NCBI GenBank assembly: GCA_016875135.1
Contig: VGSE01000006.1
Coordinates: 1 to 37,023, forward strand
DNA length: 37,023 nt
From: Deltaproteobacteria bacterium
Lineage (GTDB): Bacteria; Bdellovibrionota; FAC87; UBA2466
Direction: 5' to 3'
Below the pieces are notes generated by a model that had not been told where the DNA came from, made no database searches, and saw only the letters and a program-made list of their open reading frames with translations. This document shows, in pieces, positions 1 through 22,021 of the stretch (the first letter of the stretch is position 1; the number at the start of each line of letters is the position of its first letter). The translations under genes and the position numbers were made by a program.

Positions 1-127
1 GATAAGTTTTCCTGGAGTTTCATTTGAGAATTCACCTCACCGTTAAACGGCCAATAAACTCTGCGCCTTAAACCAATTTCATGGCCGTTTAAACCTCTTA
101 AAAAGCCCACTCAAAGGGTGCAGGTAT
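1..127 (+). repeat. Dispersed repeat family, copy 1 (may extend left of the window)
   Basis: Bases 1-127 are identical to bases 213-339 (gataagttttcctggagtttcatttgag...ctcaaagggtgcaggtat). Confidence 0.97.
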
Positions 128-150
128 CTTTGAGTAGGCTTTTTAAGAGG
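94..150. repeat. Long near-perfect hairpin (23-nt arms, 11-nt loop)
   Basis: cctcttaaaaagcccactcaaag / ggtgcaggtat / ctttgagtaggctttttaagagg; one non-Watson-Crick position in 23. Confidence 0.9.
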
Positions 151-203
151 CTGGTCCGATATATTTTTTCCTAAATTGCAAAGACTTATAGAGGACCAAG
201 GTT
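135..203 (+). repeat. Left arm of the 69-bp inverted repeat flanking the ABC transporter gene
   Basis: Reverse complement matches 2420-2488 at 65 of 69 positions. Confidence 0.95.
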
Positions 204-342
204 ATAAGATGTGATAAGTTTTCCTGGAGTTTCATTTGAGAATTCACCTCACCGTTAAACGGCCAATAAACTCTGCGCCTTAAACCAATTTCATGGCCGT
301 TTAAACCTCTTAAAAAGCCCACTCAAAGGGTGCAGGTATGAA
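202..342 (+). repeat. Dispersed repeat family, copy 2
   Basis: Bases 213-339 are identical to 1-127. The longer 202-342 interval aligns without gaps to 20105-20245 with about 16 mismatches in 141 positions. Confidence 0.97.
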
Positions 343-2419: not shown

Positions 2420-2488
2420 AACCTTGGTCTTCTATAAGTCATTGCAATTTAGGAAAAAATATATCGGACCAGCCTTTTAAAAAGCCCA
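2420..2488 (-). repeat. Right arm of the 69-bp inverted repeat flanking the ABC transporter gene
   Basis: aaccttggtcttctataagtcattgcaatttaggaaaaaatatatcggaccagccttttaaaaagccca is the reverse complement of 135-203 with 4 mismatches. Confidence 0.95.
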
Positions 2489-15399: not shown

Positions 15400-17013
15400 A
15401 TGAAATATTCAAAAAGAAAAAGAATCTTTTCCCTAGCACTTCTCAGCGCAATTATGGTTTTTCAGATTCAAGCTCCCAGCCGACTTCTTGCAGCTAATGA
15501 GACAAGTGAAGATGCTGAAGAGCCAAAAACTATCAAAGGCAAAGATAAAACCCTAACTCTTTCCGAAGGAACCTCTCGCCAACTCGAATTTCCCTTTGAC
15601 CTCGGTAAAGTCGACATCGGAAATGATGCGCTCTTTTCTTTTGTCCGTTTTCAGAAAAATGGAAAGGAACGAATCATTCGGTTCCTTCCCAAAACTGCCG
15701 GAACGACAACCATGACCATCTACGACTCTGAGGACAACCCTCGGATTACTTACACAGTGAGAGTAACTCGAGAAGACATGGGACAAATCATTTCTCAACT
15801 CGAAGAACTTCTTGGTGATGTTGAGGGTTTAAAGATCAAATCAGTCGGAGGGACTATTATTTTAGATGGAGAGATCTTATTACCTAAAGACATGATTCGG
15901 ATCAATCGAGTTATTCAGGCCATGAAAGAGAGAGACCCCAAAAAAAGCCCAACCCCAATCAAAAACCTAACAACAATCGGTAAAGTCACAATGAACATAT
16001 TAGCCGAGCGAATCGAAAGGGAAATCGGATCTCCAGAAATCCAAGCAAGAGTCATTAACAACACCATACTTTTAGAAGGAACAGCTGAAGGCGACGCCGA
16101 TGCCGATCGAGCTTTTGAAATTGCAAAAACATATCTCCCCGATGTGGTCAAACCCAACACGGCCGGAGAGTTTTCGACGGTTCAAGCTCGGCAACAAGGA
16201 GGAGATGCCGGAGGCAGCCCCATTATTATTGACCTAATGAGAGTCAGACCGAGACAAGCCTCTCCTCCCAAACAAGATATTAAGATCACTATCAATTATG
16301 TAGAGCTCACCAACGAGTATCAAAAAGCTTTTAATTTTCAGTGGCGCCCTCTAGCTTCAGACCAAAGCACTGCAACTTTTGACACTTCTCTTGGTGAAAT
16401 AAGCGCGAATCTGATTGCAACCATTACAGGGCTACTTCCTAGACTCAATACCGACAAAAATCACCAACACGCCCGAGTATTAAAACAACAAACAATCATT
16501 GTGGAAGACGGTTCGGACAAGGAGGCTGCTGTAGATAGTTCATTGGACATTTACACTAGAGTGGTCGACAACCAAGGCAATGCTCAACTCAGCCCAATCC
16601 AAGTTCAAAACTCACTCAAAGTCAGAGCAGCTACATTGCCTGGCTCCGACTCCATTTCTTTGGGCTTACAAGTGAATTTAACTTCACTAGTAGGAACGGA
16701 TAATGGACAACCCATAGTCGCAAGAAATTCCATGCAGACCAAAGTCAATATCAAAAACGGAGATTCGGCTGCGCTCGGAGGCTATGCCATCGATAATGCC
16801 TTAGCCGGATATAACCGAGATCCTCAAAGAACGATCACTAATGGGCCTCAGAATAACAACGCCTCACCGATTTTCAACTTCAATCGAACCAAAGGTTTTC
16901 GACGGGATAAGCAACAGTATGTCATCTTTGTAACCCCGGAAGTTTTACGAACTGCTAGCGCTGGTACTGACGATATCACACGTAAATTCAGATTAAATGC
17001 AGGGGAAAGATAA
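15400..17013 (+). CDS. cpaC: CpaC/RcpA-family outer membrane secretin of the Tad system
   Basis: 537 aa; signal peptide, pilus/BON-like N-terminus, secretin-type C-terminus (SLGLQVNLTSLVG, MQTKVNIKNGDSAALGGYA, KQQYVIFVTPEVL). Confidence 0.9.
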   Translation: MKYSKRKRIFSLALLSAIMVFQIQAPSRLLAANETSEDAEEPKTIKGKDKTLTLSEGTSRQLEFPFDLGKVDIGNDALFSFVRFQKNGKERIIRFLPKTAGTTTMTIYDSEDNPRITYTVRVTREDMGQIISQLEELLGDVEGLKIKSVGGTIILDGEILLPKDMIRINRVIQAMKERDPKKSPTPIKNLTTIGKVTMNILAERIEREIGSPEIQARVINNTILLEGTAEGDADADRAFEIAKTYLPDVVKPNTAGEFSTVQARQQGGDAGGSPIIIDLMRVRPRQASPPKQDIKITINYVELTNEYQKAFNFQWRPLASDQSTATFDTSLGEISANLIATITGLLPRLNTDKNHQHARVLKQQTIIVEDGSDKEAAVDSSLDIYTRVVDNQGNAQLSPIQVQNSLKVRAATLPGSDSISLGLQVNLTSLVGTDNGQPIVARNSMQTKVNIKNGDSAALGGYAIDNALAGYNRDPQRTITNGPQNNNASPIFNFNRTKGFRRDKQQYVIFVTPEVLRTASAGTDDITRKFRLNAGER

Positions 17014-17022
17014 GGAAATCAT

Positions 17023-19191
17023 ATGGCCAACGGCTATGTCATCTCGGTTCTAGGAGGTAAAGGGGGCGTAGGCAAATCTACATTTGCAGTTAACTATGCC
17101 ATTGCCACCAGTATCGATTCTAAATCAAAAGTCTTGCTCGTTGATTTAGACCCTAAAGCTTGCGGGGATATCGGCATGTTGCTTGGGACCAAACCCAAGA
17201 GAACTTTACTCGAGCTTGGAGCCCTCGAAGGAAGATTCGACCCTAATGCCTTACAAAACTATGTTGCAGTTCACCCCTCGGGTATTCACTATCTTCCAAG
17301 TGTACTCGAACCGGAACAAATGAGCTCTCTAGATCCTTCTCATGTAGCAAAAGGGCTATCTCTACTCACCGGTTTCTATAATTACATTATTGTTGATTTA
17401 GGTTCAGATATCGATCCCCCTTCCGTTAAAGCTTTAGAACTTTCTGCCCTCATTTATGTGCTGACTTTACCGGAAATTATCGTTCTACATCACACTCGGC
17501 GAATCATTGAAAAAGTACAAAACCTACTCTTCCCTCCTGAAATGATCAAGCTCGTCGTCAATCGATTCAGTGTCTCCAAAGGAATTACCCCACAGTTGAT
17601 CCAAAACAATCTAAAAAAATCGGTTTTAGGAGTTATTCCAGAGGACGAACTCACCACTGTAAGCTCAATGACTAAAGCTCAGCCTTTCATCACTTCAGCC
17701 CCAAGAACCGAGATCACCAAAAGCTACTTCTTTTTGGTACGTAATATTCAACAACAGCAAATATTAGAAAAGCTCTCCCAATTAAAAAAACCTTCGGATG
17801 CTCTGTCACGATTGGGAGGAAGTAAAACGGCTGCCGCTGCTAAACCAGGAGATAAGGCTCCGAGTTTAGTAGTCTTTGACCGCAGTCAAATGAAAGATGA
17901 GAAACCCGCCGATCAGTGGTCCTCGCTGAAACAAAGAGTCCACAAACAATTGATTGAAACAATGGACTTAAAGAAAGTAGACACTGAGACAGGCAATGAC
18001 CCTAAAAAGAAAGCCGTATTAAGAGAGAAAACAAAAACAGTCGTCGTAGAGCTGCTGGATAAAGAAGACCACCCTTTTCGATCCAGGGATGAAATTCAGA
18101 AATTGGTCAAAGAGATTCTAGATGAGGCCCTTGAATTAGGCCCCATTCAAGATCTGTTAAATGATGACTCCGTAAATGAAATTATGGTCAATCGCAAAGA
18201 CCAAATCTTTGTGGAACGAAAAGGAAAGCTTGTCCTGTCCAATACGACTTTTTCGGGGACTGCTCAACTCTTAGCTTGCATCGAAAGAATTGTTACGTCC
18301 GTTGGAAGAAGAATCGACGAGAAACAGCCCTATGTAGATGCCCGATTGGCCGACGGATCTCGTGTGCATGCGATCATTCCACCGCTCTCCATTCAAGGGC
18401 CCATGTTAACAATTCGTAAGTTCTCCAAAAGTCGTCTAACCTACAAAGACCTAGTCAAATACGGATCGATGACTGAAGAGATGGCTGATTTCTTAAGATG
18501 CTGTATCGAAGCTAGACTGAACATCGTTATTTCTGGGGGAACCGGTTCAGGGAAAACCACTCTACTCAATATCATGGCAGCGTTTATTCCCCCTGGGGAA
18601 AGAATTTTAACGGTAGAAGACTCAGCAGAATTACAACTCCCTCAAGACCATTGGGGACGCCTTGAAACGCGTCCGCCTAACATGGAGGGCAAAGGGGAGG
18701 TATCAATTAGGGATCTTGTTAGAAATACTTTGCGCATGAGACCCGATCGAATTGTGATCGGGGAGTGTCGTGCCGGAGAAGCTTTGGATATGTTACAAGC
18801 CATGAATACCGGTCACGATGGAAGTATGACGACCGTTCACTCTAACACCCCAAGAGATGCGGTCGCTCGATTGGAAACTCTGTGTTTGATGGCGGGCATG
18901 GATCTTCCTGCAAAAGCAATTCGAGAGCAAATTGCCTCGGCAGTGAACTTAATCATTCAACAGACGAGACTCTCGGATGGATCGAGAAAAGTCACAAGCA
19001 TCACGGAAGTCATCGGAATGCAGGGAGAAGTAGTTACTATGCAAGAGATCTTTGGCTTTAAAAAAACCGGTATGGACAAAGACAGAAAAGTGACCGGTAA
19101 GTTTGTTGCTACAGGATTTATCCCTAAATTTATCGATGAACTGGACCAACAGGGCATTAAAATTCCGAGAGGAATTTTTTCAGTGGGTTAA
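17023..19191 (+). CDS. ParA/MinD-like (TadZ/CpaE) ATPase fused to TadA/CpaF secretion ATPase
   Basis: 722 aa; N-terminal [18 protein letters not shown] and [15 protein letters not shown], then CpaF motifs [71 protein letters not shown]. Confidence 0.95.
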
Positions 19192-19193
19192 TT

Positions 19194-20069
19194 ATGATCG
19201 CATCGCTTTTAAAATTTTTATCGATTGGCTGGGTGGGTGGAGTTCTCTTGGTAGGTTTACTTTTAAATGGGGAACAACTCTACGGTTGGGTTGGTTTCAA
19301 AAGCAAATCGGAACAGGAGGAGATGCGGCGTCTTCTTGACTTGATGTTTATCGCGATTACCCCTCAAAAACTGAACCTTTTTTATATTCTGTATCTCACG
19401 AGTTTATTTGCCTTAGGGATCTTGTTTTTCGCCCCTTCTGTCGGCAGCATTGTTTTTTTTGGATTTCTATTGGTATTTTTAGGTTGGACGCTCCCCAGGC
19501 GAGTGCTCACTTTCATGCATAAAAAACGAATTAAAAAATTTGTTCTCCAAATGATTGATGGTCTGTCCTTAATGTCCAACGGTCTTCGATCGGGACTTAA
19601 CGTTCCTCAAGCTTTACAAATTGTGACTGAAGAGCTGCCTAATCCCATTTCTCAGGAGTTCGGACTAGTCCTTTCCCAAAACAAGTTAGGTGTCACTCTG
19701 GAAGATGCGATGTCCAATCTTTCGGTTAGAATGCCGGCCGATGATATCGAAATGTTCACAACCAGCGTCAATATTTTGAAAGAAACAGGCGGTAACTTAG
19801 CCGAGACCTTTGACACCATCTCCAAAACTATTCGAGAACGAATTAAGGTCGAATCTAAAATCTCAGCCATGGTCTCTCAAGGAGTGCTCCAAGGAATTAT
19901 TGTGGTACTCATGCCCTTTGCTTTAGCGGCTATTTTATATGCGGTCGATCCGGAGCGAATTGCTCCCATGTTCACTACAATTCCCGGATGGGCTCTCTTG
20001 CTTTTAATGATGTCTTTACAGTTTCTAGGAGGATTCACAATCTGGAAAATTGTGCAGATTAAAGTTTAG
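19194..20069 (+). CDS. tadB: TadB-like T2SSF-domain inner membrane protein
   Basis: 291 aa; FVLQMIDGLSLMSNGLRSGLNVPQALQIVTEELPNPISQEFGLVLSQNKLGVTLEDAMSNL, with flanking TM segments. Confidence 0.88.
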   Translation: MIASLLKFLSIGWVGGVLLVGLLLNGEQLYGWVGFKSKSEQEEMRRLLDLMFIAITPQKLNLFYILYLTSLFALGILFFAPSVGSIVFFGFLLVFLGWTLPRRVLTFMHKKRIKKFVLQMIDGLSLMSNGLRSGLNVPQALQIVTEELPNPISQEFGLVLSQNKLGVTLEDAMSNLSVRMPADDIEMFTTSVNILKETGGNLAETFDTISKTIRERIKVESKISAMVSQGVLQGIIVVLMPFALAAILYAVDPERIAPMFTTIPGWALLLLMMSLQFLGGFTIWKIVQIKV

Positions 20070-20104
20070 ACGCACCAAATCGGAACACCCTAACTCACTG
20101 CGCT

Positions 20105-20245
20105 TTATAAGATTTGATAAGTTTTCTTGGAGTTTCATTTGATAATGCACCTCATCGTCAAACGGCGAATAAATTTAGCGCCTTAAACCAACTTCATGGC
20201 CGTTTGAACCTCTAAAAAAGCCGGCTCAAAGGGTGCGGGTATGAA
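20105..20245 (+). repeat. Dispersed repeat family, copy 3 (diverged)
   Basis: Gap-free alignment with 202-342, about 89% identity (16 mismatches by eye). Confidence 0.95.
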
Positions 20246-20275
20246 GAATATCGTTTCGGGAGTATAATACTTAGA

Positions 20276-22021
20276 ATGAAAAACATATTAAAAAAACTTT
20301 TCTTCACCGGCTTTGTTTTTCTTTTTGGTTTTACTGCCGCTATTCATGGGGTTATCGTAAACCGGATAAACGGAGGAATGAATGCCGTTTATGTGGATTT
20401 TAGTCTTCCCGGATTGAGCGTTCCATTAGAGGTCATAAGGGCCTACAACAGTATCACGGCAATCAACGAAGCCACGGCTTGGCCCGGTTCTTTTGGTTGG
20501 GGCTGGACATCTCCTTTCGAAACAACTCTAACCATCACGGCAGAGCGTAATGCCATCCTTAGAGACGGGGGCACGGGAAACACTCTTTATTTCAAACCTG
20601 AAAAAGAAGATCCCGCAACCCGAGAGCAATTTATCAAAGCGGTCACTCGAGCTTACTACGAATCCAAAAGTGGAAGAGCCCTATCTGAGGACGAGCTTAA
20701 AACCCTAAAACTTCCTGAGAAGATGGCGAAGCAAATTCAATCAAGTGTGCAATTTAGAGCCGAAATTGCCTCAAATTATCAAATTCAAGTCACGATTCCC
20801 AAAGGGGAGCTTTTGGTTTCAAACGAATATGGTTATCAGACGCTTACCTTTAAAAATAATCAATGGATTCGCGAAAAAGAGGGTTTACTTCAAATTTTTG
20901 ATAAAGAAGGCCGAATCATCAAACATGTCGACAAAAACAATACCTCTTTCACTTTTGTCTACTCCTCCGGACCAAAATCACAGCTAATTGAGGTTCACGA
21001 TCAAGATAAAGCCTCGAGTATCAAATTAAGCTGGAGACAAGATCGAATTGTACAAATCGTCGACAATAAAGGATCTAAGGGCAAGTATGCCTATGACAAT
21101 AGCGGAAATTTAATTTCTGTGACCGATTCCACTGGGCAAGTATTTAACTATAAGTACGAAAACAAAAAGTTTCCTCACCTTATCACTCAGATCGTTTACG
21201 TTTCTGAATCCTCCTCAAACCAAACAGTAACACGTAATTTTAGATATGATGAAAATGGACTCGTTATTTATCAAAAGGAAAAAGAGGGCGTTGAAATCAG
21301 CTATGCCTATGGTCGAAATGCTACCGACCCCGAAAACAATTTCTCGACTAAAGTTACTTTTAAAAATAAAGGAGTAACCTTAGAAGAAATGGATGAGTTT
21401 TTTATAAAGAATCGTTCCGACGGCTCCAAATACCTTTACAAGCACGATAGCAAAGGGCCTACAGGAAATCTAACAACCACCTTCACCCCTTGTTGCGGGA
21501 AGCCCTCTCAAATAGTTCGAAATGGTGAAACCACTAATTTCAAATATGACGCTGAAGGTTTTTTAACTGAAAAAGTGGGCCCCTCGGAAAACTTAAAAAT
21601 CGAATACAATCCCAAATGGAAAAAAATCTCTAAAATCGTCCAAAATGGACTCACTTCAAGTTTCGAATATGATTCGAGGGGAAATCTAGTGAGAGCTACC
21701 AATAGTAGAAAAGAGCAGGTTTCTTTGAAGTACGATCGATACGGTAAAATCACCGAAATGGTGGATGGGAACTCAAATCTTTTGTCGTTCAAATATGGCC
21801 CTATCGGTAAGCCTACGTTTATTTCTCAAAAAGGGATTGGCACCGTTCTTATTGAATACGATAAAGATGGGAAAATTATAAAAACTGAAACTTTGGGACC
21901 GGAAAAAACTATGCGTCGTCCCACCCAAAACAGTTCCCAAGAAATTGCCCGAAAGGTCATGAAAAACTTTCAAAATTTACTCAACGTTTTACGGCCTGCA
22001 GGCCTCTCGACGAACGGATAA
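20276..22021 (+). CDS. Short secreted YD/RHS-repeat protein (DUF6531-like N-terminus)
   Basis: 581 aa; signal peptide; FSLPGLSVPLEVIRAYNS...GSFGWGWTSPFETTL; multiple YDxxG repeats (YDNSGNLISVTDSTGQVFNYKYE, YDSRGNLVRATNSRKEQVSLKYDRYGKITEMVDGNSN). Confidence 0.88.
   Translation: MKNILKKLFFTGFVFLFGFTAAIHGVIVNRINGGMNAVYVDFSLPGLSVPLEVIRAYNSITAINEATAWPGSFGWGWTSPFETTLTITAERNAILRDGGTGNTLYFKPEKEDPATREQFIKAVTRAYYESKSGRALSEDELKTLKLPEKMAKQIQSSVQFRAEIASNYQIQVTIPKGELLVSNEYGYQTLTFKNNQWIREKEGLLQIFDKEGRIIKHVDKNNTSFTFVYSSGPKSQLIEVHDQDKASSIKLSWRQDRIVQIVDNKGSKGKYAYDNSGNLISVTDSTGQVFNYKYENKKFPHLITQIVYVSESSSNQTVTRNFRYDENGLVIYQKEKEGVEISYAYGRNATDPENNFSTKVTFKNKGVTLEEMDEFFIKNRSDGSKYLYKHDSKGPTGNLTTTFTPCCGKPSQIVRNGETTNFKYDAEGFLTEKVGPSENLKIEYNPKWKKISKIVQNGLTSSFEYDSRGNLVRATNSRKEQVSLKYDRYGKITEMVDGNSNLLSFKYGPIGKPTFISQKGIGTVLIEYDKDGKIIKTETLGPEKTMRRPTQNSSQEIARKVMKNFQNLLNVLRPAGLSTNG

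What the first reader, a model, noticed from the sequence alone, without database searches (positions are those of the whole stretch)
20105..20245. Third copy of the repeat 20 kb away, with a compensatory stem change
20105-20245 aligns gap-free to 202-342 at about 89% identity. Copies 1 and 2 can form GTTAAACGGCC...GGCCGTTTAAAC. Copy 3 has GTCAAACGG...CCGTTTGAAC: the T to C change on the 5' side is matched by A to G on the 3' side, keeping the pair (T-A to C-G). Shared length, sharp ends (ttataagat...ggtatgaa) and apparent covariation point to a structured element (RNA or hairpin-DNA mobile repeat) rather than random similarity. It is too long and not shaped like a classic REP, and no family I know matches it.
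Basis: partly seen in the sequence, partly recalled or inferred. Interest (0 to 1): 0.65.

Follow-up and report, generated by a model that had tools for sequence, protein, structure and literature searches.

The report
Transposon miniature repeat family in Bdellovibrionota
The repeat is part of a 223-base miniature transposable element without its own enzyme, present in roughly a hundred complete or broken copies in this Bdellovibrio-relative genome and almost certainly moved by an IS1-like transposase that has the same ends; it is not a structured RNA.

Summary
In detail: 20105-20245 matches 202-342 gap-free at 88.7%. The host genome holds at least 97 non-redundant copies or fragments (51 full length). 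The 223-bp consensus has perfect 33-bp terminal inverted repeats (ATACCTGCACCCTTTGAG...), has no gene, lies between genes (0 of 21 inside a reading frame; 251 of 280 control positions were), and is flanked by 9-bp target-site duplications (16 perfect in 49; none at any other length). It is a MITE. A transposon with matching ends and an intact, distantly IS1-like transposase was found in a relative in another genus. In the sister genome UBA2466 the MITE and IS ends are identical over 24 bp, and the host genome itself holds two IS right halves at contig ends. The 'compensatory' stem change is real but minor: one pair of ten, 2 of 44 sequences, and copy 3 carries the ancestral state. Significant covariation lies in the terminal repeats. 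Copies 1 and 2 are one tandem dimer; copy 3 is left-truncated. This is a new member of a known kind. The odd part is a recurrent tandem junction, apparently formed in situ at ten or so loci.

The parts
1..127 (+). Copy 1 of the MITE (consensus positions 97-223; the contig begins inside it), first unit of a tandem dimer; right terminal repeat at 95-127
128..339 (+). Copy 2 (consensus 12-223), second unit of the dimer; shortened left terminal repeat 128-150 abuts copy 1 (junction GCAGGTAT|CTTTGAG), right terminal repeat 307-339
20105..20242 (+). Copy 3, the finding: left-truncated MITE (consensus 87-223); right terminal repeat at 20210-20242; 20243-20245 is flanking DNA
20158..20207 (+).
2420..2488 (-). 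Remnant of the left part of another copy (consensus 19-88) in opposite orientation

Best explanation
The repeat is a non-autonomous miniature inverted-repeat transposable element (MITE), 223 bp when complete, with 33-bp perfect terminal inverted repeats. It codes for nothing. A transposase made elsewhere in the genome by a distantly IS1-like insertion sequence with the same terminal sequence (ATACCTG..CCCTTT..) recognises both ends, moves or copies the element into AT-rich intergenic DNA, and leaves a 9-bp target-site duplication. Shown here: element boundaries, 9-bp duplications, copy number, intergenic placement, and matching ends on a transposase-bearing IS in related genomes. Inferred: that this IS family is the present or former source of transposase for these copies, and that no RNA function is involved. 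Copies 1 and 2 arose by a tandem duplication, copy 3 by loss of its left end.
For: At least 97 non-redundant copies/fragments >60 nt, 51 of them >=210 nt; 205 terminal-repeat sites in the genome against 2 for the reversed control pattern. 9-bp duplications: 16 perfect of 49 elements and 0 at lengths 6-8 and 10-12; per-position match 0.59-0.78 at 9 against 0.10-0.55 at other lengths. 0 of 21 insertions with duplications lie in an open frame of 300 nt or more, against 251 of 280 control positions. Terminal repeats covary. Homologous MITE in same-genus genome G004 (UBA2466) at 73% identity with conserved ends. Transposon in G010 with ends ATACCTGATCCCTTT.. and an intact 330-aa ORF; relatives with the same ends in G001 and G005. 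In G004 the IS end and a MITE end are identical over 24 nt, ATACCTGCCCCCTTTGAGTGGACC. The host genome holds two IS right halves, with ends ATACCTGGCCCTTTTGATTAGGCC, cut off by contig ends. Transposases hit NCBIfam IS1 at E 2e-11 to 1e-10 in four of four proteins.
Against: The host's own IS ends match the MITE ends at only 18 of 24 positions, and the N-terminal half of the host transposase was not found in the assembly, so a working source in this very genome is not shown. The three complete ISs examined do not show clear 9-bp duplications. Window copy 3 has no target duplication because its left end is gone.
Confidence: 0.95

Rival explanations
1. A structured RNA (small RNA or cis-regulatory element) present in many copies, the stem being held by selection on base pairing.
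For: 10-bp internal stem paired in 97.5% of cells, with one double change (T-A for C-G) in two loci, window copies 1/2 and contig 5 (L077), without single-sided intermediates.
Against: Whole element no more stable than shuffles; no Rfam family at threshold; number of pairs with two-sided change reached by 100 of 500 shuffles for the internal stem; perfect 9-bp duplications show mobility of DNA.
Confidence: 0.03
2. REP/BIME-type palindromic units moved by a RAYT (TnpA_REP, IS200/IS605-like) transposase.
For: High copy number, intergenic, palindromic, tandem arrangements.
Against: RAYT/IS200-type elements make no target duplication (own knowledge); here 9-bp duplications are clear. The ends match an IS with an IS1-like transposase.
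Confidence: 0.01
3. Same MITE, but mobilised by a different, now lost transposase that merely shares terminal sequence with the IS1-like IS seen in relatives.
For: Host IS ends match the MITE ends at only 18 of 24 positions; the interior of the MITE shows no similarity to the IS beyond the ends; the host IS copies are broken by contig ends.
Against: In sister genome G004 the IS end and a MITE end are identical over 24 nt.
Confidence: 0.25

Closest known systems
Bacterial MITEs, e.g. MITEAba12 of Acinetobacter (PMC6382973)
   Same: Short, gene-less, terminal inverted repeats shared with an autonomous IS only at the ends, 9-bp target duplications detectable in a good part of the copies, AT-rich targets
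   Different: Longer (223 against 113 bp), longer ends (33 against 16 bp), different parent family, about 100 copies or fragments in one genome; tandem units with a recurrent junction and a 52-bp minimal version
IS1 family insertion sequences (NCBIfam NF033558)
   Same: The partner transposase hits the IS1 model significantly and has a zinc ribbon and a C-terminal RKxxxTTK-like block; a 9-bp duplication is typical of IS1 (own knowledge)
   Different: Scores 42-44 bits against a cut-off of 100; single ORF of about 300-330 aa instead of the short two-frame IS1; the glutamate of the GQGEL block seen in other IS1-like proteins of the phylum is missing in this subgroup; ends unlike those of IS1
REP/BIME elements with RAYT
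   Same: Many intergenic palindromic copies
   Different: No terminal repeats or target duplications of this kind in REP; no RAYT involved

Membership tests
MITE | Terminal inverted repeats | tested here: met
   33-bp perfect repeats in the consensus
MITE | Target-site duplication of fixed length | tested here: met
   9 bp: 16 perfect of 49, none at other lengths
MITE | No transposase gene; short; many copies | tested here: met
   223 bp, at least 97 copies or fragments
MITE | Shares ends with an autonomous transposon | tested here: met
   IS in G010, G001, G005; 24 identical terminal bases between IS and MITE in G004
MITE | Mobilised in trans by that transposase | not testable with these tools
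   Needs a transposition assay
IS1 family (for the partner transposase) | Sequence match to the family model over its cut-off | tested here: not met
   42-44 bits against cut-off 100, E about 1e-11 to 1e-10; no genome of 144 in the phylum passes the cut-off
IS1 family (for the partner transposase) | DDE catalytic triad | tested here: inconclusive
   Invariant QFDEM and TDAK aspartates; third acidic residue not identified, the GQGEL glutamate of related proteins is absent; structure model too poor to use (pLDDT 44)
IS1 family (for the partner transposase) | 8-11 bp (mostly 9) target duplication (own knowledge) | tested here: inconclusive
   9 bp for the MITE; three complete ISs lack a clear duplication
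Structured RNA family | Covariation above background in the proposed stem | tested here: not met
   1 of 10 pairs, 2 cells; 100/500 shuffles reach the pair count
Structured RNA family | Transcription of the copies | not testable with these tools
   No RNA-seq
REP/RAYT | No target duplication; RAYT-type partner | tested here: not met
   9-bp duplications and an IS1-like partner

The most novel reading that the evidence does not exclude
The element multiplies locally by a distinct end-directed process. At about ten loci the exact right end (position 223) is joined to position 12 of a second unit, three loci show a second junction (205 joined to 1 or 2), the second unit is mostly the closest relative of the first at its own locus, and the original 9-bp duplication still encloses the composite at several of them. 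This would be a transposase- or hairpin-driven in situ duplication with a fixed junction, rather than ordinary transposition.
Probability: 0.3. Interest if true: 0.5.

Novelty: new member of a known kind. Interest (0 to 1): 0.3.

Why it matters
It explains a very abundant interspersed repeat of this Bdellovibrionota genome and why many of its contigs end inside this element. It adds a MITE and its divergent IS1-like partner to a group for which a literature search here found no MITE paper. The recurrent tandem junctions are a testable case of how inverted-repeat elements duplicate in place.

Tried and rejected
RNA reading: folding, Rfam and pair counts gave no support; the weak miRNA hits at 90-153 are palindrome artefacts of the dimer junction, far below their gathering scores. 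AlphaFold model of the partner transposase: mean pLDDT 44, not used further. PDB sequence search: only zinc-finger matches. Element absent from phage records and by exact pattern from viral contigs; transposase absent from the phage and plasmid collections. The exact micro-element pattern found only the 52-bp case. Literature: no paper joins MITE and Bdellovibrio in the held library.

Full report
Observation. 20105-20245 and 202-342 match gap-free over 141 nt at 88.65%. A search of the window's own genome (2.66 Mb in 290 contigs) gave more than 40 further copies at 87-100% identity, so the repeat is real and abundant. The collected loci hold 97 non-redundant stretches longer than 60 nt, 51 of them at least 210 nt. 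This is a lower bound, because each search scores only 40 candidates.

Anatomy. The consensus starts ATACCTGCACCCTTTGAGTGGGCTTTTTAAGAG and ends with its exact reverse complement. The pattern ATACCTGCWCCCTTTRA with up to two mismatches occurs 205 times in the genome, against 2 for the reversed control. Complete copies are flanked by 9-bp direct repeats: 16 perfect of 49, none perfect at 6-8 or 10-12 bp. The duplications are 76% A+T, and of 21 insertions with good duplications none interrupts an open frame of 300 nt or more, where 251 of 280 control positions lie in one. A 52-bp version made of little more than the two terminal repeats has a perfect duplication TTAGATTTT, so the interior seems not to be needed for movement (inference).

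The window copies. Window 1-127 and 128-339 are two units of a tandem dimer, identical over the 127 bp they share (period 212). The second unit begins at consensus position 12 directly after the right end of the first. Copy 3 (20105-20242) lacks consensus 1-86 and has no target duplication. It sits between a T2SSF-domain gene (19194-20069) and an RHS-repeat gene (20276-22021). A left-part remnant lies at 2420-2488 on the other strand.

The compensatory change. On 44 aligned sequences the internal 10-bp stem is paired in 97.5% of cells, but two-sided change is confined to one pair and two sequences, and 100 of 500 shuffles do as well on the number of such pairs. The C-G in copy 3 is the common state; T-A in copies 1/2 and in one copy on contig 5 (L077) is derived. 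The terminal repeats do covary: 9 pairs and 46 cells with two-sided change against a shuffled mean of 20, 0 of 500 shuffles as high on cells, and far above all slid controls. Related sequences can inflate such counts, but the effect fits two ends that are recognised or copied together. Single-strand folding is no better than shuffled sequence, and Rfam has no family over threshold there.

The mobilising element. A scan of related genomes with the terminal pattern and inspection of the hits found in G010, a family member in another genus, a 1150-bp insertion sequence with the same ends and a 330-aa reading frame. Homologues with the same ends occur in G001 (1271 bp) and G005 (1278 bp); a homologous protein is in G003. 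In G004, same genus, an IS end and a MITE end share ATACCTGCCCCCTTTGAGTGGACC, 24 of 24, and G004 carries a full 222-bp MITE at 73% identity. The host genome itself holds two right halves of such an IS, each cut by a contig end, with ends matching the MITE at 18 of 24 positions. The proteins have a zinc ribbon, invariant QFDEM and TDAK motifs and a C-terminal RHDLSRM.RKVW.TTK block. All four hit the NCBIfam IS1 model at E about 1e-11 to 1e-10 but below its cut-off, and many similar sub-cut-off proteins exist in the phylum. Most of the sampled ones carry a GQGEL-type block that this subgroup lacks, so the third catalytic residue is open. Named records place the relatives in Bdellovibrionales.

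Mechanism. Best reading: a MITE mobilised in trans by a divergent IS1-like transposase, inserting into AT-rich intergenic DNA with 9-bp staggered cuts. Shown: ends, duplications, copy number, placement, shared ends with an IS. Inferred: actual mobilisation by that IS, and the lack of an RNA function.

Unexplained. The junction GCAGGTAT|CTTTGAG (223 joined to 12) recurs on contigs 6, 12, 21, 26, 52, 62, 81, 97 (twice) and 219, and in a diverged form on 17; contigs 93, 167 and 47 show 205 joined to 1 or 2. In seven of the nine adjacent pairs that could be ranked, and in every one of the five with the 223-to-12 junction, the second unit is closest to its own partner out of 96 copies, which speaks for duplication in place. 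Outer 9-bp duplications enclose composites on contigs 12, 21, 26 and 49, even where the second unit is partial. The full head-to-tail junction of the two ends would be a 66-bp perfect palindrome, so trimming of an unstable palindrome is one possible origin; end-to-subterminal joining by the transposase is another. Sequence alone does not decide, and short-read assembly error at such palindromes cannot be excluded at every locus.

Comparison. MITEAba12 (PMC6382973) is a close analogue in kind: gene-less, 9-bp duplications, similarity to its IS only at the ends. The present family differs in length, ends, parent and host. It is a new member of a known kind.

Noticed in passing
window 127/128; also contigs 12, 17, 21, 26, 52, 62, 81, 97, 219 (L110, L046, L113, L061, L025, L071, L062, L033, L023): Recurrent tandem junction joining element position 223 to position 12, with the second unit usually closest to its own partner; outer 9-bp duplications enclose the composite at several loci.
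   Followed up: partly
L043 (contig 167), L080 (contig 93), L183 (contig 47): Mirror-type junction: a right end truncated at about position 205 followed directly by a left end at position 1 or 2.
   Followed up: partly
L069 (contig 49) and L042 (contig 108): Two composites share an identical 25-base joining sequence TTCTTTTTAAATATGCCCCAGTTGA found nowhere else in the genome.
   Followed up: partly
L186 / G000:C32:8921-8972: A 52-bp element consisting of little more than two terminal repeats, with a perfect 9-bp duplication TTAGATTTT.
   Followed up: yes
L096 391-1383, L123 1489-2400, L124 1498-2412 (-), L125 1483-2391: Transposases related to IS1 in Bdellovibrionales lack the GQGEL glutamate that most of the sampled IS1-like proteins of the phylum carry; the third catalytic residue is unclear.
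   Followed up: partly
window 15400-22021: Secretin, T2SSE/CbiA and T2SSF domain genes (Tad-like pilus or secretion cluster) followed directly by an RHS-repeat gene, with copy 3 of the MITE between them.
   Followed up: no
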